DNA of 60,476 nt, taken from positions 80,148 through 140,623 of IMG/VR virus record IMGVR_UViG_3300005095_000172; one strand, written 5' to 3'. The position numbers and the translations under genes were made by a program. The notes below the pieces were generated by a model. That model saw only the letters and a program-made list of their open reading frames with translations, ran no database searches and was not told where the DNA came from. The stretch is from a virus. Positions 9,346-47,957 of this stretch are shown piece by piece; the first letter of the stretch is position 1, and each line of letters starts with the position of its first letter.

Positions 9346-9831
9346 TGGTGGACGTGTGCGGGAACGATCCGCAGTCCGAAACACCTTTTTGCTTTGAGGA
9401 ATTACAAGTTTATCTTTCAATTTAGTCGGGGGAAGACAACCCAAAACCAGGATTTTAGGAATCCTTAGAAACCCCTCACATACGGCAGTGAAGTGCGCCA
9501 CTCCTGTCTTTTAAAAGACCGAACAAATGGTTCGTGGAGAAATTGGTCGCCTATTATTGTCCGGACGATAACGGACACCCCTGATTACTCAATGGTAACT
9601 GGGAAATGAAGATGGCTCATTTCTTCTGAGTTTTATTTTGCTACGCTATGTGTACTCCACACATTCGATAAGCCGTGACCCTTCTGGTAAACAAGTGGGT
9701 CATTCTTGTCAGGATTAAGCTACTAAAGCTCCTGTGTATGATGTATTGTTTGCATCTATTGAAAAGTTTTAAGTCATAAGACTACTTGCCTCTACACATA
9801 ATCGATGTCACGTCGATACCAAGTCACTCCC
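9346..9831 (-). ncRNA. ssrA: tmRNA (phage ssrA)
   Basis: Complete one-piece tmRNA. The 5' end starts GGGAGTG then GGTATCGACG (usual GGATTCGACG); the 3' end is TTTCGGAC then a T-arm and CACGTCCACCA with encoded CCA. The acceptor helix keeps the G3-U70 pair recognised by alanyl-tRNA synthetase, with one A-G mismatch. The resume codon is GCA at 9751-9753 and the tag reads ANNTSYTGALVA followed by TAA (9715-9717), preceded by AATAGAT as in E. coli. The T-loop is ATCGTTC, i.e. A54/U58, shared with nine tRNAs here. At 486 nt it is longer than E. coli (363), mostly 3' of the tag. Confidence 0.93.
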
Positions 9832-10233
9832 AAAGAGACGCTACAAGAGCGTCTAACCGAGATACTATCTTCGGAGGTGTTCACAAGCAGAATTTATATA
9901 CCGATCGACCAGCTTATGTATCGGTCTCAGGTGGATTTCCAACCAATTATCGCAGTGTTTGTCCCCACCGATGGAGAGCCAGAACTCGGTATATCCCCGA
10001 GAGCTTTCGCTTTGTATTTATTTTGTACCAACTGCTTTTTACGACCTTAGCTTACCGTATAGGAATCGCTGAGATTTCGCTCAGTTTCTAGCTTAGTCTA
10101 CCTGAAATTTTCAGTCGAGGTTCCCGCTTTTCGTTGAATCGACGACTTCCACGCCTTATTGGATACTAAGCCCAAAAAACAACGACGGTGCTGATTACCG
10201 ACTGGACTTACATCACTTGGAATGCCAGTTAAA
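9832..10233 (-). ncRNA. Structured RNA region upstream of tmRNA (candidate)
   Basis: About 400 nt without a credible gene. The minus strand has many local helices, e.g. CTGAGCGAAATCTCAG, GACGCTCTTGTAGCGTC and a GGTGG...CCACC arm, plus GACC/GGTC alternatives. RNase P signatures (GAGGAAAGTCC, ACAGAA) and clear group I P/Q/R/S elements were looked for and not found. It is probably co-transcribed with the 68-residue ORF and the tmRNA from the promoter at 10469. Class unknown. Confidence 0.45.
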
Positions 10234-10496: not shown

Positions 10497-11570
10497 TTAT
10501 TTTCCGAAAGTTTTCCTGATATAATCGGTTAGTTCTTTCAACCCCTCTAATAATTTCTTCCACATTTCCATCATAGAAGGATATTCGATAATAAACTCAG
10601 TTATCTTCTTAAGCATTCTATGAATAAATTTCTCAACCATCTTGATGAAGTCTTCTATCTCTTCTGAAATTTCCTTTTCAGGGTCTTTCTTATCATTATC
10701 TTCTTTATTGTCGTCTTCTTTATCGTCATTCGGTTCAGGTTTCAATAGATCAGTCTTGAATTCAGTACATACCCATAAATCCATCACGTCCATATTAAAC
10801 ACATCATATCTAAGTGCCCAATGCCCGTTATCTCCCCAAGCTTCTGACCAAGAATTTTCTACTATGAAAGAACCGCCATTAAGGTTATCATCATATCCGA
10901 TAATAGCCATAGCGTGCCCACCAACATAGTCAGTTCCACTATTTCTTCCTAAATAATTCTGTTCTTCAAGAGGTTCTTTTATATAGAAGAAGCTTTCAAA
11001 TAGATACATACCAAAAATCACTGGGTGACCTTCTGTTATTGCTGCCTTTACGCCATTAATGTCACCGTTAGGAATTCTTTCATATCTAATCACTTTATTG
11101 TCTTCAGCCATTTTCTTAGCTTCTTCAGACGGTTCTTCATTAACCATACTTTCATCAAACTCCCAGTATGACTCAAGAGGAACTCCGTATTTATTACAAA
11201 CCTTGAATGCGTCTCTCATATACGCACCCTTATCCTGTTTTCTAAGTTCTGGGTACGGTTCTCTTTCAAAATAATATACAAATAGCCTTGAAAGGTCTAC
11301 ATCTTTCCCATCTTTCTTCGCCATTGCTTCTAATGCTGAACAAGCCGCATTAGCGGTACAGGAACCAGTTCTAAGTTGGTTTTCTATCTCTCCAGTATAT
11401 TCCATCAATGAAAATGATTCTGGTAAATCTCTTTCTTCTGGTGCTTTGAAAATAAAGTCTCTTTCATCTTCTGGGTCTTTTATTACACCGTTAATAGCAG
11501 CACCCTTTAAACCAATGTCCGGAATGATTATTTCATCTGGATTTATTTCTCTTTTTAACTTAAATTCCAC
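10497..11570 (-). CDS. Papain-family (C1A) cysteine protease
   Basis: 357 residues. Catalytic segments in order: QLRTGSCTANAAC near 86-98 (active Cys), GGHAMAIIGYDD near 218 (active His) and VENSWSEAWGDNGH near 238 (Asn/Trp). After the protease domain there is an acidic linker (about 278-296, Asp/Glu/Lys repeats) and a C-terminal amphipathic helical region. No signal peptide. Start is GTG at 11568-11570 with AGGAG 7 nt upstream, and it overlaps the TAG that would end the frame-shifted NlpC product, so translation is coupled. Possible roles are virion maturation or degradation of host proteins. Confidence 0.88.
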   Translation of the reverse strand: MEFKLKREINPDEIIIPDIGLKGAAINGVIKDPEDERDFIFKAPEERDLPESFSLMEYTGEIENQLRTGSCTANAACSALEAMAKKDGKDVDLSRLFVYYFEREPYPELRKQDKGAYMRDAFKVCNKYGVPLESYWEFDESMVNEEPSEEAKKMAEDNKVIRYERIPNGDINGVKAAITEGHPVIFGMYLFESFFYIKEPLEEQNYLGRNSGTDYVGGHAMAIIGYDDNLNGGSFIVENSWSEAWGDNGHWALRYDVFNMDVMDLWVCTEFKTDLLKPEPNDDKEDDNKEDNDKKDPEKEISEEIEDFIKMVEKFIHRMLKKITEFIIEYPSMMEMWKKLLEGLKELTDYIRKTFGK

Positions 11571-12261
11571 TACAATCTCCTAATTCCTCTGAAATGTTTT
11601 CTATAATAAGGCTTATCGTAGTTAGTGATGATTACTCTCTTTGCTCCGGAAGAAGCGTGTATCATTGTTTTTTTTTCTTTGGATCGATTATAATCCCAAC
11701 GTGCCCAACTCTATTTGAAGAGTCAGAGAAGAAAATTAAATCACCCTTTTTAGCACAAGACTTTTTGATCTTTCTTCCAATTCTATATTGTTCTCTAGAA
11801 GTTCTTGGTAATTTCTTACCGTGTTTAGAATAAACTTTCTTGACAAAAGCAGAGCAATCTATACCATTTCTACTATTTCCACCATATCTATATTTAACCC
11901 CAAGGAATGTTTTAGCAGTTTTAATGACTCTTTCTGAAAATGAAAAGTAGTCCTTAATCGAACATTTCTTCTTTTTCTTCTTAAATTTTATCGATTTATA
12001 TTTTGGGTTGAATTTCTTATAGTTAAGATTAGTAGGTTTGTGAGGTTTTTTAAAATTACGAGGATGATAACTTTCTTTATTTTTTATTACTGGAGAAGTT
12101 ATGTTTTCATCTGGGTCTATAATAGGGAAATTACTTGATATATTTATTTCTATGATTTCAACTTTAGTTAAAGAAAAATCTTTATTTATACCAAAATTGG
12201 CATTTCCTATAAAAATAGAAAAGATGATAAGGAGGAATGTGACTACAAATACTTTATTCAT
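11570..12261 (-). CDS. NlpC/P60 cell-wall hydrolase, interrupted at an A9 run
   Basis: The frame from 12261 has a signal peptide (NKVFVVTFLLIIFSIFIGNA), a Lys-rich linker and an NlpC/P60 domain: YRYGGNSRNGIDCSAF (catalytic Cys), then GHVGIII (His). It stops at 11662, just after a run of nine A (plus-strand T 11668-11676), before the domain's last strands. In the -1 frame translation continues as MIHASSGAKRVIITNYDKPY... and ends at TAG 11570-11572, overlapping the protease GTG start. The full product is about 230 residues. Either the run slips (A-AAA-AAA is a -1 slippery heptamer; poly-A also allows transcriptional slippage) or one A is missing from the assembly. Confidence 0.85.
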
Positions 12262-12328: not shown

Positions 12329-12892
12329 CTAGAACTTGTAATTAACGCCAACAGAAACGATTTCTTTATTAAAGTCACCGTCTTGTAGACCATCTAGGTC
12401 AGAATTATCATTGACCACATAGTCAGCAAATACGTCGAAATCTTCATTGAGAGCATAAGAAGCACCGATTCCGTATGCGAACCCGTCAGCTTCATCTTTC
12501 CCATTATCTACATTAGAATAACCGAAAAGCCCATACACTCCAACATCACATACATTATACTGAGGTTTCAAGAAACCAGCAATTGTATAAACATCACCAA
12601 AATCATCAATAGAACTAAACAAAGTGTTATATCTACCTTCTACAGCAGCTGAGAAGTCACCATTTCTATAGAAGACATATCCAGCATCAATACCAACGCC
12701 AGTAGTTTCAAATGTTTTGAACTTATCTGAAGTGATAGATTCACCTGCGATGATTGATCCACCAACATAGAAATCCTTAGTATTCTGAACTACTGGTACT
12801 TCTACTGCTGGTTCAACTGGAGCGATATCTCCTCCTGCATATAGAGTAATTGAAGCTAACATAGCTACCAAAAGAGTTTTTAATTTTGTCAT
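12329..12892 (-). CDS. Outer-membrane beta-barrel protein
   Basis: 187 residues. Sec signal peptide TKLKTLLVAMLASITLYA, mature start GGDIAPVEP, then eight or so amphipathic strands (KDFYVGGSIIAG ... AGYVFYRNG ... VEGRYNTLF ... LFGYSNVD ... GIGASYALN ... VFADYVVND ... VSVGVNYKF) ending in Phe, as barrel proteins do. The AGGDIAPVEP pattern is characteristic of Campylobacterota outer-membrane proteins, suggesting host origin. A phage barrel could alter the infected cell's surface (superinfection exclusion); this is inference. Confidence 0.85.
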   Translation of the reverse strand: MTKLKTLLVAMLASITLYAGGDIAPVEPAVEVPVVQNTKDFYVGGSIIAGESITSDKFKTFETTGVGIDAGYVFYRNGDFSAAVEGRYNTLFSSIDDFGDVYTIAGFLKPQYNVCDVGVYGLFGYSNVDNGKDEADGFAYGIGASYALNEDFDVFADYVVNDNSDLDGLQDGDFNKEIVSVGVNYKF

Positions 12893-13759: not shown

Positions 13760-15259
13760 TTATAGTTCAATACTTTCAATTTCTTTCACTAAAGCGTCTT
13801 TATCATTCCAAATCTTAGGGATGATTTTCAACATTCTATCAGAATACCCAGTTACTTCTAGTACATTATCATTCAACTTCAAAGGCGTTCCATTTCCGTA
13901 CCCTTCTAAATTCCAGAATAAAACTTTAACCTTTGGGTTTATCTTTCTATATTCTTTCATGGTATCATTGAAACTTACTCCGTTTCCACCCCAAGAAGTT
14001 CCAATTTCATTTTCTTGCATATCAGTAAATATAATGAGTTTATCAACGAAAATACTTTTCTTAACTAATTCAGACACTGCAGAAGATAGATTAGTTCCAC
14101 CACCTTTAGAATATGTATTAGTAATGAAATTCATTGGTGAATCGATTTCAACTCTTCTTGGAGTAGTTGCCCAAAGATATCCAATCACATTATCTTTATC
14201 TAAGCCAGAAATCATACTAGCCATCATGACTTTTCCAAGACTAAACGGCGACTTAGAGAATACATAACCAGAACCCATGGAAGCAGATTCATCAAGAAGT
14301 AAAGCTACTCTTTCTCCGTCATTGACAAGATTGAGGTTCTTTCCTGAAATTTTAAATGCTTCTTCAATGACATTCATCACTTTCTTCTGGAAAAATGGGT
14401 CTACTTCATCCAATCTCTTCACTGTTTCATATGCCTGAGCAAATCTAAAAGGAAGTACTCTAGATTTCAAGATTCTATTTTCATCACCTAAAAGACCAAC
14501 AAGCAAATCAATAGTTTCTCTATCTGGACCTGCTTCAAGGATATTCTTGACATTCTTTAGAGCAGCCATATATCCAAGTTTATTATTTTTCAGCATATCT
14601 TTATAAGCCGATATTCTATCTTCACTTCCAGCATTTACTGTTTGCGCAGTTTGAATACTAGGGAGACGACCTTCGAGTGCCTGTTTAAACATCAATCTTT
14701 GTTCATCTGTAGTAGGTGTTGGGTGAGAGATGTTAATCAAATTAGACACCTTCACAGAACCGTTCCCAAAGTACTTCTTTAATTGATATTTATCCCACTT
14801 AGTCTCTAGTGCCATCTTAATAGCCTTTCTAAGTGAATTAGGAATCATCTTTCCTGGATTTCTTTGATTCCACAAAGCGACAATTTCAGTAGCATCATCT
14901 GGTCTAATTAGAGTTTTATAAAAAGCTCTTTTAGTAAAAGAAAATCCCTTGAATCTTTCTGCAACAAGAACAGCAAGAAGATGAGAAACAGAACGGAGAT
15001 TTCCTTCATTTCTCACATACACCATAGCCTTAGCAAGGAATTTCTTGAAATCCAAATCTTCTTCAGAGAAAAAAGATTCAATGTTTTTCATTCTTTCTTG
15101 TTCAGTCTCATAGTATGAATCACTAATTAACAATGAATTCATGATGATAGAAACGAATTCCTTTTTAACATCAGTTCTTTCAAATGCTGGGAAACCTTCT
15201 TTATTTTCAGAGTTTGGGATAGAATTAACTCCCTTATTAGATGTGTTAAATTTTGCCAT
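13760..15259 (-). CDS. rsr: Ro60/TROVE RNA-binding protein (Rsr)
   Basis: 499 residues. The N-terminal HEAT-like TROVE ring has the usual landmarks (VYVRNEGNLRS..HLLAVL, KTLIRPDDATEIV, LRKAIKMAL, YQLKKYFG), followed by a von Willebrand A domain with an intact MIDAS (ALLLDESASMGSG; DxSxS) near 375. Ro60 binds misfolded RNAs and Y RNAs, and in bacteria can tether PNPase. The frame opens further upstream with TTG at 15326-15328, but the ATG at 15257-15259 has AAGGA 7 nt before it, and the earlier start would lie inside the adjacent Y RNA. Four Y-like RNAs lie just upstream. Ro60 genes are known in some phages but are uncommon. Confidence 0.93.
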   Translation of the reverse strand: MAKFNTSNKGVNSIPNSENKEGFPAFERTDVKKEFVSIIMNSLLISDSYYETEQERMKNIESFFSEEDLDFKKFLAKAMVYVRNEGNLRSVSHLLAVLVAERFKGFSFTKRAFYKTLIRPDDATEIVALWNQRNPGKMIPNSLRKAIKMALETKWDKYQLKKYFGNGSVKVSNLINISHPTPTTDEQRLMFKQALEGRLPSIQTAQTVNAGSEDRISAYKDMLKNNKLGYMAALKNVKNILEAGPDRETIDLLVGLLGDENRILKSRVLPFRFAQAYETVKRLDEVDPFFQKKVMNVIEEAFKISGKNLNLVNDGERVALLLDESASMGSGYVFSKSPFSLGKVMMASMISGLDKDNVIGYLWATTPRRVEIDSPMNFITNTYSKGGGTNLSSAVSELVKKSIFVDKLIIFTDMQENEIGTSWGGNGVSFNDTMKEYRKINPKVKVLFWNLEGYGNGTPLKLNDNVLEVTGYSDRMLKIIPKIWNDKDALVKEIESIEL

Positions 15260-15296
15260 TTTCATTTCCTTTAGTTCTAATTCATTTAGACGATTT

Positions 15297-15461
15297 AAGT
15301 CTTTTAAAAGCAAAATGAAATCGCTCAAAAGTTTTTTATGTCTGGTGCTCTACCAACTGAGCTAATCCCCTCCAAGAGAGGATACCGGACTCGAACCGAT
15401 GACATCCAGGGTTCAGATTACGATGTAATTTTGAGCTGTAATTTTTGCTTTTAAAAGACTT
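15297..15461 (-). ncRNA. Y RNA 1 (YrlA-type, permuted tRNA-like domain)
   Basis: Lies 38 nt upstream of rsr on the same strand. A perfect 15-bp closing stem (AAGTCTTTTAAAAGC with its complement) leads to an internal loop with ATTACA on the 5' side and GATTTCA on the 3' side, then a second stem (GCTCAAAA/TTTTGAGC). The inner domain is a tRNA in permuted order: T-arm CGGTTCGAGTCCG, 3' acceptor strand ATCCTCT, a short loop, 5' acceptor strand AGGGGAT, D-arm GCTCAGTTGGTAGAGC, then anticodon-stem halves CCAG/CTGG opening outward. The acceptor pairs fully and includes a G3-U70-type pair. This is the layout of bacterial YrlA RNAs, which mimic tRNA and bind Ro60. Confidence 0.88.
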
Positions 15462-15797: not shown

Positions 15798-16441
15798 TTA
15801 AGAGAACCTTATCTTGAAGTCGATGAATAATTTATAAAGATTTCTTTCAAAATCCCCAGAAACGAATGGGTGAACATCAAATATCTTTGGTATCCCATCA
15901 GATACCTTATATTGAAAAGTAATCACGCCAGAATATTTCATTTTAGAAATTATTTCAGTAAGTTGTTGAGGATACTATCAAGAAAATAATGGTCATTTTC
16001 TTGGAGTTTCTTTTGCTGTCTAGAAGTCCTGTCTACTCTAACCTTGTTTCTTCCATAACATATATTAGAATTATGGATAATTTCCCCTTTATGACAAAAG
16101 AACATAGAAGAGAATTCAGTTCCAATGACATACTCTTGTATCACATCAGAATTCAAATCTTTTCTAAAATCAACACATTTCACGCCTTTACTAAGACATC
16201 CTCTTTGATTTTTTACTACGACCTTGCCACTTGTTGGGTTTAAGCTAGGTAAAAATTCAGAAAATCCTAAATCTGAAAGGTGTTTATGAGTTTTGAGTTT
16301 GTTTCTAAATGTATCTCTGAAAAATTTAGTAGCTACGAACTTCCCACCAAGTGTGTTCATTACGTGCCTGTATTGAAGAGGGATTTCATAATCGTAATTC
16401 TTACTTTTATCCCTAATTATCTTTATCCCATGTTGTTTCAA
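15798..16441 (-). pseudogene. ATP-grasp-like protein, frameshifted
   Basis: The frame from 16441 gives 163 residues: FRNKLKTHKHLSDLGFSEFLPS, KVVVKNQRGCLSKGV and VIQEYVIGTEFSSMFF, which is the core of an ATP-grasp ligase. It stops at 15950. The missing C-terminal ATP-grasp segment (SKMKYSGVITFQYKVSDG, then IFDVHP) is present in another frame ending at TAA 15798-15800; inserting one base near 15955 joins them into about 214 residues. The pre-ATP domain is absent, so even joined it is short for the family. Decayed gene or assembly indel. Confidence 0.7.
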
Positions 16442-16501
16442 TAATTCTTATTGAATTTCAAAATCAAAAAGTTAGAAGTTAAAATAGTCAAATCATTTCT
16501 C

Positions 16502-16556
16502 CATATAGCAGAAACCTTTCGGCAACGGTAGCTAAGACCGAATCTTCGTGCTATAT
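16502..16556 (-). ncRNA. Structured hairpin downstream of Y RNA 3
   Basis: ATATAGCA/TGCTATAT stem enclosing a GC-rich folded core (CGGTCTTAGCTACCGTTGCCG...). It directly follows Y RNA 3 in the groEL transcript direction. No poly-U, so not a classical terminator; class unknown. Confidence 0.4.
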
Positions 16557-16557
16557 T

Positions 16558-16630
16558 TCACAGATGAAATCGAAAGAGAGATTTTGGGTTGCTTTAAGAA
16601 TCGATGTAATCTCTTTCTTTAATTCTGTGA
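16558..16630 (-). ncRNA. Y RNA 3 (candidate, minimal form)
   Basis: 73 nt just after the groEL stop. TCACAGA/TCTGTGA closing stem, internal loop ATTAAA / GATTTCA, second stem GAAAGAG/CTCTTTC, then the conserved ATTACATCG. Same architecture as Y RNAs 1, 2 and 4 with different paired bases. Only about 20 nt of inner loop, so no effector domain. Confidence 0.65.
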
Positions 16631-16635
16631 TTGAG

Positions 16636-18186
16636 TTATTTAGTAATAGAAACTTCTGTAGTTAGTAGAGTAGAAGCAATAGAGTTCGCATTTACTAATG
16701 CTATTCTAGTCACCTTCAGAGGATCAATCACCCCACTTTCAAATAAATCTTCAAGTTCTCCAGTTACTGCGTTAAATCCAATCATCTCAGGTTCTTCATC
16801 TCTAATCCCTTCTATGATTTCTTCTTGATTAGTGAAACCTGCATTCTCTAGAATCTTCTTGAATGGTTCAAGTATGGACTCAAGAACTATCTCAGCACCT
16901 ACTCCAGCGTCTCCACTGAATGGGTTATGAATCTTTGAAGCGTGGATTAATGCGCATCCTCCGCCTATCACAATGCCCTCTGAAATAGCTGACTTAGTTG
17001 CTTCAACCGCATCATCGAATCTATCTTTCTTTTCAGCCATCTCAAATTCTGTTTGTGCTCCAACCTTAATGGTCGCAGCAGATCCAGTTATCCTAGCAAT
17101 TCTCTTCTCTATGGTTTTAATATCAGTTGAATTTTCCTTAGAAGATTCTAACTTATTAACAAATTCTTCAATTTTTTCTTTATCACCATGTCCAGAAACA
17201 ATAACTGTATTCCCAGAAGTGATGATAACCTTATCAGCACTACCAAGGTCTTCTAGATTAAGTCCTTCTAGAGATTTACCAGTTTCTTTAGAAACAAGAG
17301 TGGCTCCAGTGACTAAAGAAATGTCCTTAAGGTATTCTTCTTTAGAAAGACCAAATCCTGGAGACTTAACAGCGAATACATTTAAAGTACCTCTCATTTT
17401 ATTTACGATAATAGAAGATAGTGCTTCACCCTCAACTTCTTCTGCGATAATCAACAGAGGTCTTTGAGTTTTTTGAACTTTTTCTAGAATAGGAAGAATG
17501 GTGATCAACTGAGAAACCTTTCCATCCACGACCATAATGAACGGGTCTTCTAGTTCAGCTCTTTCTCTTTCTGAATTAGTGATGAAATGCGGAGAAAGAT
17601 ATCCTCTATTAAATTCAAATCCCTTCGTGACTTCCAATTCGTCTTTATCACCAGAAGCTTCTTCTACAGTGATAATACCATTTCTCCCTACTTCTGAAAT
17701 AGCCTTAGCAATCAATTCTCCAATTTCTCTATCTCCATTAGCAGAAATTGTTGCTACATTAACGATATCTTCATCTGAAATTTCTCTTGAATTTTCTTTC
17801 AGTTCTTCCAATACCAATTCTACCATTTTATCCATACCACGCTTCATCGCAACTGGATTAACTTCATTCAAACGCTTTAAACCATTTTGAAAAATAGCAT
17901 TTGCTAAAACGGTAGAAGTAGTTGTCCCATCACCTGCCTCAAAAGCAGTATTCGCTGAAACTTCTTTTACAATCTGAGCACCCATGTTTTCTATTCTATC
18001 TTTAAAGAACACTTCATGGGCGACAGTAACTCCGTCCTTTGTTAGGTGTGGCTTAGATTCTTCTCTTTCGATAAGAACATTCTTTCCCATTGGACCCATA
18101 GTGGAACTAACTGCATCAGTTAATTTTTGTACCCCTTTAGAAAGTTTCTTTCTTGCTTTTTTACCAAATTTGATATCTTTACTCAT
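16636..18186 (-). CDS. groEL: Chaperonin GroEL
   Basis: 516 residues. Near-complete GroEL: TMGPMGKNVLIE, DGVTVA, AGDGTTTSTVLA (ATP site), and IVIGGGCALIHAS near 400. It lacks the Gly-Gly-Met tail and is about 30 residues shorter than E. coli GroEL. Two ATGs are adjacent (18187-18189 and 18184-18186); the second is the usual SKDIKFG start. It overlaps groES by a few nt. Phage GroEL may fold phage-specific proteins or replace the need for host chaperonin. Confidence 0.95.
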   Translation of the reverse strand: MSKDIKFGKKARKKLSKGVQKLTDAVSSTMGPMGKNVLIEREESKPHLTKDGVTVAHEVFFKDRIENMGAQIVKEVSANTAFEAGDGTTTSTVLANAIFQNGLKRLNEVNPVAMKRGMDKMVELVLEELKENSREISDEDIVNVATISANGDREIGELIAKAISEVGRNGIITVEEASGDKDELEVTKGFEFNRGYLSPHFITNSERERAELEDPFIMVVDGKVSQLITILPILEKVQKTQRPLLIIAEEVEGEALSSIIVNKMRGTLNVFAVKSPGFGLSKEEYLKDISLVTGATLVSKETGKSLEGLNLEDLGSADKVIITSGNTVIVSGHGDKEKIEEFVNKLESSKENSTDIKTIEKRIARITGSAATIKVGAQTEFEMAEKKDRFDDAVEATKSAISEGIVIGGGCALIHASKIHNPFSGDAGVGAEIVLESILEPFKKILENAGFTNQEEIIEGIRDEEPEMIGFNAVTGELEDLFESGVIDPLKVTRIALVNANSIASTLLTTEVSITK

Positions 18187-18454
18187 CAATCACCCCAAGT
18201 ACATTAATTTCATTAAGGAGCACATATTGTTCTCCTTCAAAGTTCACTTTATAAGCCCCGTGTGACTCATAGTAAACTGTTTCCCCGACTTTTAGTAAGG
18301 TAATATTTTCTCCAACTGAAACTATATCACCCTTAGCAGTTTCTTTAGAGTCAGAAGATTGTGTTTCATAAACAATCCCTGATGCTGAGACACTCTCTTC
18401 TTTTAAAGTGTGTGGTTTAATTAAAATCTTATCACCTACTGGTCTTATCATCAA
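18179..18454 (-). CDS. groES: Co-chaperonin GroES
   Basis: 91 residues. RPVGDKILIKP start, SASGIVY near 26 (mobile loop region) and KVGETVYYESHGA near 56. Normal GroES length. It precedes and overlaps groEL, the standard operon order. A -10-like TACAAT with an upstream TTATAAG lies at about 18490-18515. Confidence 0.92.
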   Translation of the reverse strand: MMIRPVGDKILIKPHTLKEESVSASGIVYETQSSDSKETAKGDIVSVGENITLLKVGETVYYESHGAYKVNFEGEQYVLLNEINVLGVIDE

Positions 18455-19160: not shown

Positions 19161-20057
19161 ATAGTTTTGGTTGCAGTGCGTCGGTACTGCCCCGACCTAA
19201 ACGAGCGTATGAGACTCGTAAGAACTCTATGCCTTCCGCCTGCTTTAAAGAATGCGCCACGAAGTTCGTTTTTAAAGTGGTGAATAACGTGTAAAGACCA
19301 CTACCTTTCGCACCGCTGGTTAGGCAGCACTTACTATTTTTGAGTTCGCATTTTGGTTGCTCACTCTCGGCTGTCAAGCCTAACTACACCCCCATTTAGC
19401 CAGTTGGGTCTGCTCAGTTTACCAAAGACTGACACAGAAACACCCGTTCCAACGGACTCTCTTGCAACTCGTTAATGGGAATCGAACCCAAAATGTTCCT
19501 GTGTCAGTCTTCTTTGTAGATATCGACCATTTATGGTCTTCGATTACGAACACTTTCCACTTTCAAGAAGTTTCGGAGTTATTCGACTACTTGAGCCCAA
19601 AGGCTTATTCAATGATGTCGGAGAGACCGTCCTGCTACCCAGCATAGCGTTCATAATCAGGATTAAATGTCCTTAATAGACACCGCTGGCACCTGACTTT
19701 CACCATTGAATAAACCTTAATGATTTATTTTTAGTTGGTTGAGACTACACCGTCTATAGAATTCCTTTGATCGGATTATTAGTTCCCGATTTTGTCCACT
19801 CACCGTTTCCAGTTAGTAGAATTCCGTGACTGCTTTTGTTTAGGCTTTCGCCAGCAAGTAGCGTTTCTTGCGTCCCCATTAACTACTCCTATGTTCCTAT
19901 CCAGTCAGGCTTGCGACCTGCGAACTTCCGCTAAGAAGACCCTTCAATTATCCACAGAACAACTTCAGCCTTGCGAGCTTCCATTGTCCTCATTCCCACA
20001 TTATGGGTGCGGACTTAAGCCACTTTCGTTAATGAGCGAGGGAGACTTTGCATTTAA
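19161..20057 (-). ncRNA. Large structured RNA region L2 (candidate)
   Basis: About 900 nt with no credible gene, between two tRNAs. GC content is higher than in the coding regions and paired elements are many. One sub-domain (19425-19511) is closed by an AAGACTGACACAG stem and contains a T-arm (GGGTTCGATTCCC) followed by CCGTTGGAACGG, again T-arm before D-arm-like hairpin as in Y RNA 1, but without the ATTACA/GATTTCA loop. Long tRNA-adjacent RNAs of this kind in phages include the GOLLD and ROOL classes; membership not testable here. Confidence 0.5.
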
Positions 20058-20126
20058 TTGATATATTGGATTTGAACCAATACTAACAGACCCTAATTCT
20101 GTCGCTCTACCATTAAGCAAATATCT
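20058..20126 (-). tRNA. tRNA with UAG anticodon (class I scaffold)
   Basis: Acceptor GATATTT/ATATATC (6 of 7 paired), D-arm, ACAGA/TCTGT anticodon stem with loop ATTAGGG giving anticodon UAG (reads CUA), canonical T-loop TTCAAAT, no encoded CCA. A short variable loop is abnormal for Leu, and a proper class II tRNA-Leu(UAG) exists at 32942. Identity uncertain. Confidence 0.6.
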
Positions 20127-20700
20127 AGTTGACAAGGACACGCTCCCTCAGGAGTTCCCACAACTTTTGGTCGCAGGAATGCTCCGCATCCTTTGTCATT
20201 TCCTCTAACAGAGTACTTTGACCATCTTATAAGTTACTCAGCCCTTACGGACTTTTTACTTATAAGATTGACATACAGCCCTTGTGCGTTACCACTCAAA
20301 CCGTATATCCCCTGATTCGACTTTCGACTTCTTACAGATTTTGCGTGTGATAGTTCCCTTGCAGGGGAACAGGGCTCCTACAGCGTTGCCCTCGGAATCC
20401 TTTTTCTCACTCTGTCGTTCAGTCTGAGTTCCACCTTAGTGAAACCACAGAGTCGTCAGTTTTTTGTACATGGTGATATCAACACGATACCCGATGGCCA
20501 GTCACGACCACCTTTCTCCCATTTCTGGGAATATCCTAACGACCATACACAGCCGGAAGGGATAATTACTGTCAAGCATTGGCTTTATTTTCACGGGACG
20601 AACCCTTGTGTTTTATACCAACTAAAGTAAAACCCTTCAAGGAGAGGAAATTAAAAGAAAGGCTAGTTCCTCTCCTTGAAAGGTTCAGAAAAGTCTTGAG
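20127..20700 (-). ncRNA. Large structured RNA region L3 (candidate)
   Basis: About 570 nt without a gene. At its 5' side (20638-20692) is an 18-bp hairpin pairing CTTCAAGGAGAGGAA with its complement. Further helices include CTTATAAGT...ACTTATAAG and CCCTGTTCCCCTGCAAGGG. Several GNRA-like turns. It follows S1 RNA and its promoter on the same strand. Candidate GOLLD/ROOL-type ornate RNA; unverified. Confidence 0.5.
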
Positions 20701-32373: not shown

Positions 32374-32450
32374 TGGGGTGATAGACGGGGAACGATCCCG
32401 CAACCTTCGGTGCCACAAACCGACACTCTACCAATTGAGCTACTATCACC
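32374..32450 (-). tRNA. tRNA-His(GUG)
   Basis: Extra 5' G (G-1) opposite C73, as histidine tRNAs require; loop TTGTGGC. T-loop is ATCGTTC: A54/U58 variant. CCA encoded. Confidence 0.92.
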
Positions 32451-32461
32451 ATAAATTTCAA

Positions 32462-32525
32462 GAACAACTCATATTTTAGTTAAAACTCGTTGAAATTTAT
32501 ATTTTAACTAAAATATGAGTTGTTC
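32462..32525. repeat. Long perfect inverted repeat
   Basis: About 25-bp arms (AAGAACAACTCATATTTTAG... and complement) around a 16-nt loop, just 5' of tRNA-His. It includes the end of the 34-residue ORF. Could be an RNase III-type processing hairpin for the tRNA transcript. Confidence 0.8.
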
Positions 32526-32608
32526 TTGTGCTTGACTTTCCTCTTATAAACTTTACCGTTCTTATAAGAACACTTAGCGTTGGTGTTTCCTGGTTTTCTA
32601 ATTCTCAT
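32504..32608 (-). CDS. Small basic peptide
   Basis: 34 residues, Lys/Arg/Asn-rich (RIRKPGNTNAKCSYKNGKVY...). GGAG 6 nt before ATG. Its last codons lie in the inverted repeat. Confidence 0.4.
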   Translation of the reverse strand: MRIRKPGNTNAKCSYKNGKVYKRKVKHKNNSYFS

Positions 32609-32642
32609 TTAACACTCCAATCGAAAGTCACAAAGAGATTAC

Positions 32643-32756
32643 TTAGTAAGGAAAATCTCCCAGTAACTTAGCAAACATTTTCTTTTTTAGGTCAGAATCA
32701 GCCAAAACATACAATTCTAACAACTCTCGTTTAGACAATTTACTTAAAACTTCCAT
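32643..32756 (-). CDS. Small hypothetical peptide
   Basis: 37 residues (EVLSKLSKRELLELYVLADSD ...), helical. An AGGAG lies about 12 nt upstream, a little far. Possible. Confidence 0.35.
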   Translation of the reverse strand: MEVLSKLSKRELLELYVLADSDLKKKMFAKLLGDFPY

Positions 32757-32788
32757 TAATGTCCCATTCTCCTGTCCTTAAAATGATT

Positions 32789-32858
32789 TGGTACTCCGTG
32801 AGGGTAACGATCCCACATCTTGAGTTTCGAAGACTCAATAGCGTCCTTCGCACAGAGC
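32789..32858 (-). tRNA. tRNA-Arg(UCG)
   Basis: Acceptor GCTCTGT/ACGGAGT, very short D-arm (GCG/CGC), loop CTTCGAA, T-loop ATCGTTA (A54/U58), ACCA end. Only 70 nt. Confidence 0.85.
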
Positions 32859-32863
32859 AAATT

Positions 32864-32938
32864 TGGCAGGGTATGGAGGTTACGATCCCCCGACAATGGG
32901 TTTGGAGCCCATTATTTTACCGATTAAACTAATACCCT
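32864..32938 (-). tRNA. tRNA-Trp(CCA)
   Basis: Acceptor AGGGTAT/ATACCCT, G73, loop CTCCAAA, T-loop ATCGTAA (A54/U58), CCA encoded. Confidence 0.92.
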
Positions 32939-32941
32939 ATT

Positions 32942-33028
32942 TGGTGCCGACGGGGAGACTTGAACTCCCACGCATATTTCAGCACTGGTTTCTAAGACCA
33001 GCGTGTCTACCAGTTCCACCACGTCGGC
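32942..33028 (-). tRNA. tRNA-Leu(UAG)
   Basis: Class II. Acceptor GCCGACG/CGTCGGC, loop CTTAGAA, T-loop TTCAAGT (canonical), CCA encoded. Confidence 0.93.
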
Positions 33029-33034
33029 AAATTA

Positions 33035-33120
33035 TGGAGGACAGCATCGGTCCCGACCCGAATGCTTTTACACACGATCACCTTAGCAGGGTGTCCCAGA
33101 CCCCGTCTGGTTTACTGTCC
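33035..33120 (-). tRNA. tRNA-Ser(GCU)
   Basis: Class II. Acceptor GGACAG/CTGTCC, loop CTGCTAA. T-loop GTCGGGA: G54/G58 variant. UCCA end. Confidence 0.85.
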
Positions 33121-33122
33121 TT

Positions 33123-33198
33123 TGGTCGGTCTAAGTGGGCTCGAACCACTGACTTCCATCTTGTAAGGATGACACTCTACCAACTGAGTTATAGACCG
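33123..33198 (-). tRNA. tRNA-Val(UAC)
   Basis: Acceptor CGGTCTA/TAGACCG, loop CTTACAA, canonical T-loop TTCGAGC, CCA encoded. Confidence 0.93.
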
Positions 33199-33200
33199 AA

Positions 33201-33275
33201 TGGATGAGGTAGAGGGTTACGATCCCCCGATACGAGAGTCAAAGTCTCGTGTGTTGCCGATTACACTATACCTCA
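33201..33275 (-). tRNA. tRNA-Gln(UUG)
   Basis: Acceptor TGAGGTA/TACCTCA, loop CTTTGAC, T-loop ATCGTAA (A54/U58), CCA encoded. Confidence 0.92.
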
Positions 33276-33302
33276 AAAATGAAGTGAAGTTTGAACTTCT
33301 TT

Positions 33303-33378
33303 TGGAGCGGATGAACGGCTACGATCCGTCAACCTTCGATTTGGAAAAACGACGCTCTACCTATTGAGCTACATCCGC
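33303..33378 (-). tRNA. tRNA-Gly(UCC)
   Basis: Acceptor GCGGATG/CATCCGC, loop TTTCCAA with one anticodon-stem mismatch, T-loop ATCGTAG (A54/U58), CCA encoded. Confidence 0.9.
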
Positions 33379-33380
33379 AT

Positions 33381-33454
33381 TGGTACCGTGCCTTGGTTCC
33401 GACCCAAGCAATCACTCCTTATGAGAGAGTAACGGACACCAGTCTCCGCACGGC
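33381..33454 (-). tRNA. tRNA with CAU anticodon (Met or Ile2)
   Basis: Acceptor GCCGTGC/GCACGGT, loop CTCATAA, T-loop GTCGGAA (G54/G58), CCA encoded. Could read AUA if C34 is modified to lysidine. Confidence 0.85.
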
Positions 33455-33461
33455 AAAATTA

Positions 33462-33549
33462 TGGTGGGTGTGGTAGAATTTGAATCTACTGAGTATCCAT
33501 GTACTGGTTTTACAGACCAGCGTGACTCCTCCATCGTCACCGCACACCC
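33462..33549 (-). tRNA. tRNA-Tyr(GUA)
   Basis: Class II. Acceptor GGGTGTG/CACACCC, loop CTGTAAA, T-loop TTCAAAT, CCA encoded. Confidence 0.93.
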
Positions 33550-33564
33550 ATAACATTTACTTAT

Positions 33565-33639
33565 TGGTCGGGATGGAGAATTTTGAAATCTCGTCCTCTA
33601 GTTCCCAAAACTAGCACTCTTCCTCTGAGCTACATCCCG
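33565..33639 (-). tRNA. tRNA-Pro(UGG)
   Basis: Acceptor CGGGATG/CATCCCG, loop TTTGGGA, T-loop TTCAAAA with a U-U at 53-61, CCA encoded. Confidence 0.9.
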
Positions 33640-33644
33640 ATATT

Positions 33645-33722
33645 TGGTGACTCCAGCCGGACTCGAACCGAGCAACCTTCGCTGTGAAAGAGCGACGAGG
33701 TAACCAATTCCTCTATGGAGCC
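33645..33722 (-). tRNA. tRNA-Glu(UUC), copy 1
   Basis: Acceptor GGCTCCA/TGGAGTC, loop CTTTCAC, canonical T-loop TTCGAGT, CCA encoded. A second tRNA-Glu(UUC) with the variant T-loop lies at 33893. Confidence 0.92.
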
Positions 33723-33735
33723 AAAAACTTAAAAA

Positions 33736-33811
33736 TGGTGGGACTGAGTGGAATCGAACCACCGACACAAGGATTTTCAATCCTCTGCTCTACCAACTGA
33801 GCTACAGTCCC
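33736..33811 (-). tRNA. tRNA-Phe(GAA)
   Basis: Acceptor GGGACTG/CAGTCCC, loop TTGAAAA, canonical T-loop TTCGATT, CCA encoded. Confidence 0.94.
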
Positions 33812-33815
33812 ATTT

Positions 33816-33889
33816 TGGTCCTCGTACAAGGTAACGCTCCTTGTTTTACCCGTTATCAGCGGATCGTTTTACTTTTAAACTATACGAGG
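33816..33889 (-). tRNA. tRNA-Ile(GAU)
   Basis: Acceptor CCTCGTA/TACGAGG, A73, loop CTGATAA. T-loop AGCGTTA: A54/U58, and position 55 is G, so the near-universal pseudouridine is impossible. Confidence 0.88.
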
Positions 33890-33892
33890 ATA

Positions 33893-33967
33893 TGGTGACT
33901 CCGATGGGTAACGATCCCACTTCTTCTGGTTGAAAACCAGACGACCTAACCTGTAGTCGACGGAGCC
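33893..33967 (-). tRNA. tRNA-Glu(UUC), copy 2
   Basis: Acceptor GGCTCCG/CGGAGTC, stem TCTGG/CCAGA with loop TTTTCAA, T-loop ATCGTTA (A54/U58), CCA encoded. Same anticodon as copy 1 but different body and T-loop type. Confidence 0.92.
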
Positions 33968-33974
33968 AATGTTT

Positions 33975-34049
33975 TGGTGGACTAGGGAGAATCGAACTCA
34001 CTGACATCTTCCTTGCAAGGGAAAATCGCTGAACCCACAGCTCTAGCCC
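33975..34049 (-). tRNA. tRNA-Ala(UGC)
   Basis: Acceptor GGGCTAG/CTAGTCC with G3-U70, loop CTTGCAA, canonical T-loop TTCGATT, CCA encoded. Confidence 0.93.
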
Positions 34050-34061
34050 ATAATTATAAAA

Positions 34062-34137
34062 TGGCGCAGACGACAGGTTACGATCCTGCTCTCTTCGACG
34101 TGACAAGCCGATGCTTTCCCGATTAAGCTACGTCTGC
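34062..34137 (-). tRNA. tRNA-Asp(GUC)
   Basis: Acceptor GCAGACG/CGTCTGC, G73, loop TTGTCAC, T-loop ATCGTAA (A54/U58), CCA encoded. Confidence 0.92.
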
Positions 34138-34139
34138 AT

Positions 34140-34214
34140 TGGTGGTTCCTGAAGGTATCGATCCTTCGTCCCCTGATTAAAAGTCAGGTATTCTTCCAAT
34201 TGAACTAAGGAAAC
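34140..34214 (-). tRNA. tRNA-Lys(UUU)
   Basis: Acceptor GTTTCCT/AGGAACC with one mismatch, loop CTTTTAA, T-loop ATCGATA (A54/A58), CCA encoded. Confidence 0.9.
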
Positions 34215-34216
34215 AT

Positions 34217-34289
34217 TGGTAGGGATAGGATTCGAACCTACATCTGCGGAGGTAGAAGCTCCGTGCATTAATCCAATTATGCTAATCCT
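34217..34289 (-). tRNA. tRNA-Arg(UCU), acceptor mismatched
   Basis: D-arm, anticodon arm (CGGAG/CTCCG, loop CTTCTAC) and T-loop TTCGAAT are sound, but the 3' acceptor strand TATCCCT does not pair well with its own 5' end (AGGATTA). It pairs 7 of 7 with GGGGATA of an orphan 5' half-tRNA at 34990-35024. Its 5' end overlaps the stop codon of the homing-nuclease gene, so it looks like a chimera made by that element. Confidence 0.75.
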
Positions 34290-34962
34290 GCTTTTTCATC
34301 GAAAAATTCTCACATTCTTCTAAAGTAGTTATCCAAATGATATTTCCATATGTTTCATTTAATATATCTATCTTTTCCCTTTGTACTTCAAAAGCATAAG
34401 GATTTTTTGGGTCTAAATAAACATCAAATTCTCCTAAATAAAAATCAGGAAAGTATTTGTGATTTTCCCCATCCATTTCATATACTAATGGTTCTGGTCT
34501 ATTCCACTCTATATTTAAGAAATCGAGCCGTTTAGCTAATGCTAATTCCCATGATGAATCTAATTTTACAATTTCGCCATTTTTCATCATATAATCTATC
34601 ATTTTCCTTCTTAATCTCCTATGATTAGAAGAAAGTGCCTTTTCACTAATAATACACTTAGTTTCTTCAGAATGTGTTTTACCTTTCCAAAATTTTTTCA
34701 CTCTTCCAGAATCATAGCCTTCTTTCAATTTGTTAGAAGCTTTTGAAATTCGTTCATCTGTATCCTTAGTTCTTCCTTTGTTCCATGCAAAGTTCCCATT
34801 TTCAGCCTTAACCTTTCTCATTTCTTCTAAATGTTTCATGTGTTCGTTTCGTTTTGGATTTTTATCACACCACCTACTATGGTTTGCCATAAACCCTTTT
34901 GGTTTGTTGGAAATATCAAATTCTTCCAAACAATATATGCACTTTCTTATATCACAAATCAT
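34282..34962 (-). CDS. Homing endonuclease with NUMOD3-like motif
   Basis: 226 residues. N-terminal Cys-rich unit (CIYCLEEF), repeated NUMOD3-like helices (FAWNKGRTKDTDERIS; FWKGKTHSEETKCIISEKA) that bind DNA, and a C-terminal nuclease-like part (DSSWELALAKRLD, YFPDFYL, VYLDPKN) resembling PD-(D/E)xK/EDxHD homing nucleases. It sits between an orphan tRNA 5' half and tRNA-Arg, consistent with a mobile gene targeting a tRNA. Confidence 0.85.
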   Translation of the reverse strand: MICDIRKCIYCLEEFDISNKPKGFMANHSRWCDKNPKRNEHMKHLEEMRKVKAENGNFAWNKGRTKDTDERISKASNKLKEGYDSGRVKKFWKGKTHSEETKCIISEKALSSNHRRLRRKMIDYMMKNGEIVKLDSSWELALAKRLDFLNIEWNRPEPLVYEMDGENHKYFPDFYLGEFDVYLDPKNPYAFEVQREKIDILNETYGNIIWITTLEECENFSMKKQD

Positions 34963-34989
34963 AAAAACTCCTTTGAGTTATTCAATAAT

Positions 34990-35024
34990 GAAGGCACGTG
35001 TTCTATCCATTGAACTATATCCCC
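34990..35024 (-). pseudogene. Orphan 5' half of a tRNA
   Basis: GGGGATA acceptor strand, D-arm GTTCAATGGATAGAAC and CGTGCCTTC, i.e. a tRNA cut inside its anticodon loop. What follows is the leader of the homing-nuclease gene. Confidence 0.7.
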
Positions 35025-35027
35025 ATA

Positions 35028-35103
35028 TGGAGCTGGATATCGGGAACGATCCGATGACCTACAGTTTACAAAACTGTCGCTCTACCAACTGAGCTAATCC
35101 AGC
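35028..35103 (-). tRNA. tRNA-Thr(UGU)
   Basis: Acceptor GCTGGAT/ATCCAGC, loop TTTGTAA, T-loop ATCGTTC (A54/U58), CCA encoded. Confidence 0.93.
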
Positions 35104-45741: not shown

Positions 45742-46428
45742 TTAGTTCCTTTTACAAGAGCTTACAATTTTATTCAATTCATTTAGTACTCTTTGAGGGT
45801 TCACTTTTTGACTGTTCTCTAAAAACAATCTATTAAACACCCTTTCAGTTCCTCTAGCCCAAGTGAGGTTATATTCAGAAATGAACCTCAACGCACGATA
45901 CATTCTTAGGTAATCTTCCTGCATTCTTTCTTTAGCATTTCCATTGAATCTAAGTACTCTGTCTCTGATATCCTTTAGACCAAAACCAGTCGGGTCGATG
46001 ATTTCTCCTGTTTTAAGACTAAAGTACAGACTATTGATAGAAAAGTCCCTTCTCATAGCGTCATCTTTCATAGTACCAGTTTCGACTCCTTCCGGTCTTC
46101 GCCCGTTACTATACATACCATCTTTTCTAAACAAAGCAATTTCAAATTCGTGTCTATGACCATTGATCACCTTAGTGGCCATCAGGACTAAGAATTCTTT
46201 CCCCGTTTCTTTGATACTCCAACCAGCCGTTTCAAATGCTTCAGATAAATTATCGTAACCGACATTACCGACGACAAAATCAAAGTCCTTTACCTTTCTA
46301 TTGAAAAGGACGTTCCTAACAGCACCGCCTACTAAATAACTTTCTTCAGTCACTGAAAGAAGAATCATACTCACTTCTAATAGAACAGCATCATTCTCAA
46401 ATAATTCAATTAATCTATGGTCTTTCAT
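45742..46428 (-). CDS. tRNA nucleotidyltransferase-like (CCA-adding type)
   Basis: 228 residues. SYLVGGAVRNVLFNRKVKD then DFDFVVG (catalytic Asp pair), RRDFSINSLYF near 135, IDPTGFGLKDI and EDYLRMYRALRF near 175: the head and neck of class II CCA-adding/poly(A) polymerases. The tail domain is much shortened. With a large tRNA array this suggests 3'-end repair, although most of these tRNAs encode CCA. Own promoter. Confidence 0.85.
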   Translation of the reverse strand: MKDHRLIELFENDAVLLEVSMILLSVTEESYLVGGAVRNVLFNRKVKDFDFVVGNVGYDNLSEAFETAGWSIKETGKEFLVLMATKVINGHRHEFEIALFRKDGMYSNGRRPEGVETGTMKDDAMRRDFSINSLYFSLKTGEIIDPTGFGLKDIRDRVLRFNGNAKERMQEDYLRMYRALRFISEYNLTWARGTERVFNRLFLENSQKVNPQRVLNELNKIVSSCKRN

Positions 46429-46452
46429 AAATACCCTTTCTTTAACAGTTAT

Positions 46453-46476
46453 ATTATAACTAAAGTTAGCTTAAAG
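46453..46476 (-). promoter_or_regulatory. TTAAG-N11-TATAAT promoter
   Basis: TATAAT 46453-46458, CTTTAAG 11 nt upstream; serves the CCA-type gene. Confidence 0.7.
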
Positions 46477-46481
46477 AAATG

Positions 46482-46925
46482 TTATGAAAGGATGTCCCTC
46501 ACTATCCTCGAAAGTTCTTTACCGTCATATCTTCCTTTAAACCTTTCTTCTTCCTTGAAGAACTTCATTAAATCACCGATGTTTGCTTCTGGATTTGTTT
46601 GAAGATAAACTCCAATTTCCTTTTCAATTTCTTCTTTAGACAATTGCTTAGGAAGATATGAATTATAAACCCCTCTTTCCAAACCGAATTCAAGACATTT
46701 TTCAGAAAGTTTTTCATCACAACCAAGAAGTTTCCAATTTTCAAAGACTCCTTTTTTGAACTTTTGGATAAGAGAAATCATTTCTTCATCAGTAGTTTCT
46801 CTATTTCCTTTATTCTTACCTACCATAACCCCTTCAGAAACCAAAGCACCCAAAATTCTAGCTTTAAACGAGTCACCTGTTTTTCTTGCCTGAAGTAAAT
46901 CTTTTCTAATCTTTTCTAACAACAT
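46482..46925 (-). CDS. GatB/YqeY-domain protein
   Basis: 147 residues. LLEKIRKDLLQARKTGDSFKARIL start, NSYLPKQLSKEEIEKEI near 85 and RYDGKELSRIVRDIL end, the YqeY/GatB-tail fold that binds tRNA in amidotransferases. Free-standing YqeY is common but of unclear role; it may act on tRNAs here. Confidence 0.82.
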   Translation of the reverse strand: MLLEKIRKDLLQARKTGDSFKARILGALVSEGVMVGKNKGNRETTDEEMISLIQKFKKGVFENWKLLGCDEKLSEKCLEFGLERGVYNSYLPKQLSKEEIEKEIGVYLQTNPEANIGDLMKFFKEEERFKGRYDGKELSRIVRDILS

Positions 46926-47957
46926 TTATACATCCTTATTGTAAAGATGGATTAGGAATAGTTCAATCCAATCCATCGTTTCTCTATCCGACTCTTCTGG
47001 TAGAGCACATCTTTCAATTTTATTCTTCACAGTATCAAGTAACGAATTCACTTGTTCCATAACTTCTTCTAATTCTACCTTCCCTTCCTTTACTTCTTTA
47101 ATGCGAGAAGCATCTTTCAATGGGAACTTAATGAAACCAGTGTCGATAAGTTCTTCTACTTCTAAAAGCACCCTCAATGCGTGGGACAGTGCCTTCCAGT
47201 CAGTGCCTCCAACTGAAGCCTTTGTTCTATTACCAAATTGTTCAAACATAGAATTCACATTAGAATAAAAATAACCAACAGTAACATCACCGCTGAATTT
47301 CTTACCTAATACTTCCAAGTAAACAATTGTGTTATCGCCTTTACCAGTTTTTGGGCCAGGAGCTTCAACGAAGTTAATATACTTCTTATCTGAAACAAAT
47401 TCTTCAAGAACAGGAAATAAATACCCCAATTTAGACTCTACTGTCTTACTTGCAACAGTATCTAGTTTTTGAACAAAATCACTAAGTTCTTTATACCTAG
47501 TTCCCTTAATTCCGTATTTTTTAGACTGACCAACAGCATATCCAGTAAATGAATGAAGTCTTCTATTCAAGAACTTTTTATAGTACATTTTAATGTGGTC
47601 TTCGAAGACTGGGTCTATGAATTCAACTGAGTCAGACCACATACTAAATAGGATATCTATTGCTCCTGTTTCACCCTTTCTTAATAGGTTGAAGAACATA
47701 TGTAAAGAAATAAGTTGTAAATCAACATCATCCACGGAATTCTTTTCGTTAGTATTATTCGTGTTAGAAGTCCAGTGTTCTAAATCTTTTTTCAAAAGGA
47801 TATCATCCATCATAGGAACGAAAATCCCTTTATAATCCGTATCAGAAAATTCATTATCTGTACCATATAACTTAGAACCATACTTTGTTACATAAACAAT
47901 TCTGTTCCCAGTTTCATTTTCAAACTCTTCAAGTTTTTTCTTTAATTCTTCATTCAT
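46926..47957 (-). CDS. Predicted nucleotidyltransferase
   Basis: 343 residues. VTKYGSKLYGTDNEFSDTDYKGIFV near 23-47 is the GS...SDxD signature of pol-beta-type nucleotidyltransferases; ISLHMFFNLLRKGETGAIDIL follows as in the phage/YcgL-like family. Substrate unknown, possibly RNA ends. Own promoter at 47980. Confidence 0.8.
   Translation of the reverse strand: MNEELKKKLEEFENETGNRIVYVTKYGSKLYGTDNEFSDTDYKGIFVPMMDDILLKKDLEHWTSNTNNTNEKNSVDDVDLQLISLHMFFNLLRKGETGAIDILFSMWSDSVEFIDPVFEDHIKMYYKKFLNRRLHSFTGYAVGQSKKYGIKGTRYKELSDFVQKLDTVASKTVESKLGYLFPVLEEFVSDKKYINFVEAPGPKTGKGDNTIVYLEVLGKKFSGDVTVGYFYSNVNSMFEQFGNRTKASVGGTDWKALSHALRVLLEVEELIDTGFIKFPLKDASRIKEVKEGKVELEEVMEQVNSLLDTVKNKIERCALPEESDRETMDWIELFLIHLYNKDV

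What the first reader, a model, noticed from the sequence alone, without database searches (positions are those of the whole stretch)
9346..9831. Phage-encoded tmRNA with its own tag and a variant T-loop
A full tmRNA with tag ANNTSYTGALVA, which keeps the G3-U70 alanine identity pair but has the A54/U58 T-loop. The tag ends in LVA rather than LAA, a change known in reporter tags to alter protease recognition. Phage tmRNAs are rare; this one may redirect tagged proteins or sustain ribosome rescue after host tmRNA loss.
Basis: partly seen in the sequence, partly recalled or inferred. Interest (0 to 1): 0.72.

Follow-up and report, generated by a model that had tools for sequence, protein, structure and literature searches.

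The report
Phage tmRNA with swapped T-loop pair
A large bacterial virus carries its own copy of the RNA that rescues stuck ribosomes; its tag resembles the probable host's tag, so it is mostly an ordinary phage tmRNA, but its tRNA-like end has a rare swapped base pair that nine of the phage's own tRNAs share.

Summary
The tmRNA is real. It lies on the minus strand, 9831→9346; Rfam RF00023 scores 57.8 bits against a cut-off of 47, E 4.7e-20. ARAGORN misses it. Tag, G3·U70 and the A54/U58 T-loop are as described; in addition there is an A4·G69 acceptor mismatch, U85-A86-G87-like bases before the resume codon, a P2 helix, a P5 hairpin around the stop, and an enlarged pseudoknot region (486 nt against 348-403 in Campylobacterota).
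The interpretation needs changing. LVA behaves like LAA in published reporters, and the tag matches tags of the probable host clade: ANNTSYTGALVA against ANNTDYRPAYAVA. Redirection is therefore unsupported. Phage tmRNAs are a known class.
What is unusual is the T-loop. The Campylobacterota tmRNAs extracted (107 plus 4) are U54/A58 wherever readable. In viral contigs only 2 other tmRNA-like RNAs have A54/U58, against at least 120 canonical. Nine of the phage's 25 tRNAs share it; it recurs rarely in tRNAs of isolated phages.
Most likely it is a functional phage ssrA using host SmpB, alanyl-tRNA synthetase and Clp proteases to keep ribosomes cycling while the host declines. It probably lacks the m5U54 site. 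Expression and activity were not testable.

The parts
9346..9831 (-). complete one-piece tmRNA gene (ssrA), 486 nt
   Evidence: RF00023 57.8 bits, E 4.7e-20; alignment
9715..9753 (-). tag reading frame GCA...UAA, ANNTSYTGALVA*
   Evidence: read from sequence
9754..9758 (-). UAGAU just upstream of the resume codon; U-A-G at the positions of E. coli U85 A86 G87 (UAGUC)
   Evidence: sequence; importance of A86 from PMC2481249
9825..9831 (-). acceptor stem 5' strand GGGAGUG (G3 of G3-U70; A4 faces G69)
9350..9356 (-). acceptor stem 3' strand CACGUCC (U70), followed by ACCA 9346-9349
9357..9373 (-). T-arm UGCGG-AUCGUUC-CCGCA; A54 at 9368, U58 at 9364
9784..9809 (-). P2 5' side: GACAUC (9804-9809) and GAGGCAAGU (9784-9792)
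   Evidence: CM alignment; two-strand fold
9380..9409 (-). P2 3' side: ACUUG...CCUC (9396-9409) and GGUGUU (9380-9385)
9710..9734 (-). P5 hairpin CAGGA...UCCUG around the stop codon
   Evidence: sequence; fold
9410..9709 (-). enlarged pseudoknot domain between P5 and P2 3'; its pseudoknots are not resolved
   Evidence: 176 positions where the CM expects 29, low posterior probability
32374..32449 (-). tRNA-His with the A54/U58 T-loop (one of nine; others: Arg-tcg 32789-32858, Trp 32864-32938, Gln 33201-33275, Gly 33303-33378, Ile 33816-33889, Glu 33893-33967, Asp 34062-34137, Thr 35028-35103)
   Evidence: ARAGORN plus T-loop reading

Best explanation
This is a phage-borne, full-length ssrA gene. 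After end processing to CCA it is charged with alanine (G3-U70), is carried into stalled ribosomes by host SmpB and EF-Tu, resumes translation at GCA and adds (A)ANNTSYTGALVA, which host ClpXP-type proteases should degrade much as they do host-tagged proteins. Its likely benefit is to keep ribosome rescue going during a lytic infection in which host transcription and RNA decline. The T-loop carries a swapped 54-58 pair (A54/U58 for U54/A58), a variant also present in nine of the phage's own 25 tRNAs; the paired change argues that the elbow fold is kept while the m5U54 methylation site is lost. Shown: gene, tag, P2/P5, identity pair, T-loop, sharing with tRNAs, host-like tag. Inferred: expression, charging, SmpB use, degradation, benefit, host.
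For: RF00023 57.8 bits over the full model. Intact 12-codon tag, U-A-G upstream bases, P2, P5, G3-U70, CCA. Tag like those of Campylobacterota: ANNTNYAPAYAKVA types, and ANNTDYRPAYAVA in the four genomes with the closest relatives of the phage OMP. LVA and LAA are both fast tags. No SmpB in the 140.6-kb record, so host SmpB would be needed. The phage keeps 25 tRNAs plus RlaP, PolyA_pol-head, polynucleotide-kinase-like and YqeY-like genes. A54 goes with U58 in 18 of 21 sampled A54 tRNAs.
Against: A4-G69 mismatch beside G3-U70; weak CM score (57.8 against 143-149 for the four host-candidate genomes); ARAGORN miss; the full fold is not unusually stable (z = -1.3); no relative with this tmRNA was found, so there is no direct conservation test: L309 (69% SbcD) has a different gene upstream there, L006 and L310 show no tmRNA nearby. 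Sequence likeness of the whole RNA to Campylobacterota tmRNAs is low (19 + 16 bits).
Confidence: 0.77

Rival explanations
1. Decaying capture: an ssrA gene once acquired and now drifting, with the acceptor mismatch, enlarged pseudoknot region and odd T-loop as signs of decay.
For: A4-G69 mismatch, low CM score, ARAGORN miss; absent near the homologous genes of L006, L309 and L310.
Against: Tag frame, P2, P5, identity pair, CCA and UAG upstream bases all intact. The T-loop change is a matched pair that nine phage tRNAs share, not random damage.
Confidence: 0.12
2. Decoy or inhibitor: the phage RNA titrates host SmpB, as proposed for the TLD-only RNA of mycobacteriophage DS6A.
For: TLD-only precedent (PMC4131195, PMC11915505); a second TLD-only-like RNA with the same T-loop in L004.
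Against: This RNA keeps a complete host-like tag frame, stop and resume signals, which a decoy does not need.
Confidence: 0.07
3. Redirection: the tag sends phage-tagged proteins to a different fate from host-tagged ones.
For: The tag is not identical to any host tag seen; it lacks the YAK segment and ends in LVA.
Against: VA ends are normal in the host clade; LVA behaves like LAA.
Confidence: 0.04

Closest known systems
Bacterial one-piece tmRNA (ssrA, RF00023)
   Same: TLD with G3-U70 and CCA, P2, tag frame starting at GCA, P5 around the stop
   Different: A54/U58 T-loop, A4-G69 mismatch, 486 nt with an enlarged, unresolved pseudoknot domain
Phage-encoded tmRNAs (Bacillus phage G, mycobacteriophages Bxz1, Wildcat and others; 79 in the 2025 database, PMC4131195 and PMC11915505)
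   Same: own tmRNA with own tag in a phage genome
   Different: variant T-loop; tag like that of Campylobacterota; lies in a phage with T4-like replication genes
tmRNA of L002 (viral contig IMGVR_UViG_3300031673_000209, tag ANDNADLAVAA)
   Same: phage-contig tmRNA with A54/U58 (AUCAUUC)
   Different: 380 nt, different tag, reported by ARAGORN, no evident kinship beyond the class
Mycobacteriophage DS6A TLD-only tmRNA
   Same: phage-borne tmRNA tRNA-like domain
   Different: DS6A has no tag frame and a similar molecule inhibits tmRNA; this one has a full tag frame

Membership tests
tmRNA (RF00023) | covariance-model score over the curated cut-off | tested here: met
   57.8 bits, GA 47, model 1-374
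tmRNA (RF00023) | alanine identity pair G3-U70 and 3' CCA | tested here: met
   sequence; acceptor otherwise has an A4-G69 mismatch
tmRNA (RF00023) | tag frame with Ala resume codon, stop within P5, A86-equivalent upstream | tested here: met
   A86 role PMC2481249
tmRNA (RF00023) | P2 helix joining TLD to the mRNA-like domain | tested here: met
   15 pairs in three blocks
tmRNA (RF00023) | four pseudoknots | tested here: inconclusive
   PK region poorly aligned; the folding tools used do not predict pseudoknots; no relatives for covariation
tmRNA (RF00023) | canonical U54/A58 T-loop (typical rather than strictly defining) | tested here: not met
   A54/U58; also varied in the L002 tmRNA
tmRNA (RF00023) | SmpB partner | not testable with these tools
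   no SmpB in the record; host SmpB binding needs experiment
phage-encoded tmRNA | gene lies in a phage genome, not in a prophage-flanking host segment | tested here: met
   140.6-kb virus record with T4-like SbcC/D, UvsX, DNA polymerase, helicase and RNR genes

The most novel reading that the evidence does not exclude
The phage runs a partly separate set of translation RNAs, nine tRNAs and its tmRNA, whose T-loop 54-58 pair is swapped to A54/U58. This would remove the TrmA-type m5U54 site (and A58) and let these RNAs escape T-loop-dependent host factors such as modification checks, tRNA-cutting defence enzymes or decay, while still working on the ribosome.
Probability: 0.17. Interest if true: 0.7.

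Novelty: new variant of a known kind. Interest (0 to 1): 0.36.

Why it matters
As a phage tmRNA it adds one member to a known class and shows a tag that follows the probable host clade, which argues for ordinary degradation rather than redirection. The shared A54/U58 T-loop is the part that could matter: U54/A58 is close to universal, TrmA is reported to methylate U54 in both tRNA and tmRNA (as cited in PMC7912444), and a paired swap in ten RNAs of one phage gives a clean, testable case of T-loop change in phage translation RNAs. No report of A54/U58 in phage tRNAs turned up in the few open-access searches made here; that is not proof of absence.

Tried and rejected
Near-identity search of known phages with window 1-25000 and distant search with the tmRNA: no match. 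Relatives through SbcD: L005 and L309 end or diverge before the tmRNA place; L006 and L310 show none. The papain-like protease neighbour gave no relative. A viral scan for ANNxxYxxA-xVA-type tags found nothing. Chance: rejected on the E-value and the coherent parts. Permuted tmRNA: RF04321 reaches 27 bits against a cut-off of 47, rejected. ES239 on the other strand: 24 bits against 62, rejected. Capture from Campylobacterota ssrA judged by whole-RNA likeness: not supported, since tmRNAs with ANDENYALAA-type tags score higher on that profile; only the tag is close, and its ALVA end also resembles the ALAA end of such tags. TATAAAT late-promoter-like motif at 9898 upstream: it occurs on both strands throughout (17 minus, 19 plus), so it was not used as evidence. 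The genome search with RF00023 did not find this tmRNA in its own record, so its RF00023 negatives for viral records were not relied on.

Full report
Observation. Rfam's tmRNA model covers 9831→9346 on the minus strand end to end at 57.8 bits (cut-off 47, E 4.7e-20). ARAGORN reports 25 tRNAs but not this RNA. The sequence gives the tag ANNTSYTGALVA with resume codon GCA at RNA position 79, acceptor pairs G1-C, G2-C, G3·U70, then an A4·G69 mismatch, then three more pairs, an encoded CCA, and T-loop AUCGUUC (A54, U58). P2 has three blocks (GACAUC/GGUGUU, GAGG/CCUC, CAAGU/ACUUG), which also form in a two-strand fold. CAGGA/UCCUG encloses the stop codon. The five bases before GCA are UAGAU, keeping U85, A86 and G87 of E. 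coli; A86 is needed for activity there (PMC2481249). The pseudoknot domain is enlarged and not resolved; total length is 486 nt against 348-403 in 107 Campylobacterota tmRNAs. The fold as a whole is not clearly more stable than shuffles (z -1.3), so the case rests on the model match and the parts.

Setting. The window is 80148-140623 of a 140,623-bp virus record. Nearly all genes run on the minus strand. SbcC/SbcD, UvsX, an AAA ATPase of clamp-loader type, ribonucleotide reductase, PhoH, a DNA polymerase in two pieces, and helicases mark a phage with T4-like replication genes. The tmRNA is the only one found; the first 80 kb of the record hold no tRNA, tmRNA or Rfam match. No SmpB was found in the record. 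Neighbours are a papain-like protease gene upstream and a small HNH gene downstream.

Host. An outer-membrane beta-barrel gene (12329-12892) has relatives in 13 of 249 Campylobacterota genomes, the best three at 35-42% identity and several genomes with many copies; the NrdA search lists Campylobacter phages among its better hits (about 41% identity). This makes Campylobacterota the probable host phylum, not a proven one: other genes, such as GroEL, UvsX and SbcD, are nearest to phages of other hosts.

Tag. A pattern for ANNxx[YF]APAYA-type tags hit 112 stretches in the genome collection, and every one listed is Campylobacterota. ARAGORN extracted 107 tmRNAs from them, 56 ending KAA, 47 KVA, 3 RVA and 1 HAA; the pattern itself required the ANN start, so that part is not an independent finding. 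The four genomes with the best OMP matches all carry ANNTDYRPAYAVA, found without that pattern. The phage tag lines up as ANNT-S-Y-TG-A-LVA. A terminal VA is therefore host-like. Reporter work puts LVA with LAA as fast tags, AAV and ASV as slower (PMC9097571, PMC5732988). Redirection has no support.

T-loop. Among the 107 Campylobacterota tmRNAs every readable T-arm is U54/A58 (one was not scored), as are the four; a pattern for an A54/U58 tmRNA 3' end matched 0 of 249 Campylobacterota genomes (no positive control was run for that pattern). In the window 9 of 25 tRNAs have A54/U58 and one A54/A58. Elsewhere it is a minority: 2 of 130 tRNAs in other viral contigs, 6 of 107 in eight isolated phages (found in Bacillus phage CM1, Stenotrophomonas phage DLP_6 and Pseudomonas phage Astolliot), 1 of 12 in relative L006, 0 of 12 in Campylobacterota loci. 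Seven of the isolated phages were picked by likeness to this tRNA cluster, so that rate may be too high. Window against the rest: Fisher p about 4e-6 (tRNAs are not independent). A54 pairs with U58 in 18 of 21 cases, so the two sites change together. 54-58 forms the reverse-Hoogsteen pair of the T-loop (PMC7912444, PMC7566577), and TrmA is reported there to make m5U54 in tmRNA; A54 removes that site. What the swap is for is not known.

Mechanism. Most likely a working tmRNA that borrows host AlaRS, SmpB, EF-Tu and Clp proteases, sustaining ribosome rescue in a declining host. Rivals are decay, a decoy for SmpB, and redirection; none is excluded, all are less supported.

Novelty. Phage tmRNAs are known (list in PMC4131195; 79 sequences in PMC11915505; huge phages, PMC7162821). 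The gene is a new member; the T-loop shared with the phage's tRNAs makes it a variant. Limits: one genome, no relatives carrying the RNA, no expression data, pseudoknots unresolved, host inferred.

Noticed in passing
window 19736-20194 (-): GOLLD RNA (RF02032, 191 bits) with a tRNA-Leu(tag) at 20057-20127 lying inside it.
   Followed up: no
window 13760-15328 (-): Ro60-like TROVE-domain protein.
   Followed up: no
window 16636-18189 (-): Phage GroEL/Cpn60, about 48% identical to chaperonins of other phages.
   Followed up: partly
window 32374-35103: Nine tRNAs with A54/U58 T-loops interleaved with canonical ones; tRNA-Glu(ttc) exists in both forms (33645 canonical, 33893 variant).
   Followed up: partly
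L004:2931-2998 (-): 68-nt TLD-only tmRNA-like RNA with A54/U58 T-loop and no room for a tag frame, like the DS6A form; 41.2 bits, under the cut-off.
   Followed up: partly
L006:6375-7037: About 650 nt without an evident plus-strand gene, seemingly structured, ending in a T-arm-like TGTGG-TTCGAGT-CCACG; no Rfam match.
   Followed up: no
L391:17312-19384 (-): Thymidylate-synthase-like protein of 690 aa with HNH-type matches in its middle, probably an intein or homing insertion.
   Followed up: no
L392:14042-15214 and 16330-17844 (-): DNA polymerase in two ORFs matching profile parts 497-847 and 6-489 of phrog_262, so the gene is split.
   Followed up: no
window 45742-47957; L389:503-1720: Possible RNA repair set: PolyA_pol-head protein, YqeY-like protein, RlaP, and a polynucleotide-kinase-like protein.
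   Followed up: no
window 9832-10233 (-): About 400 nt without a convincing gene directly upstream of the tmRNA, with a hairpin AGACGCTC-TTGTA-GCGTCT just before the tmRNA 5' end.
   Followed up: no
window 10497-11570 and 11662-12261 (-): A papain-family (C1) protease and an NlpC/P60 protein near the tmRNA.
   Followed up: no
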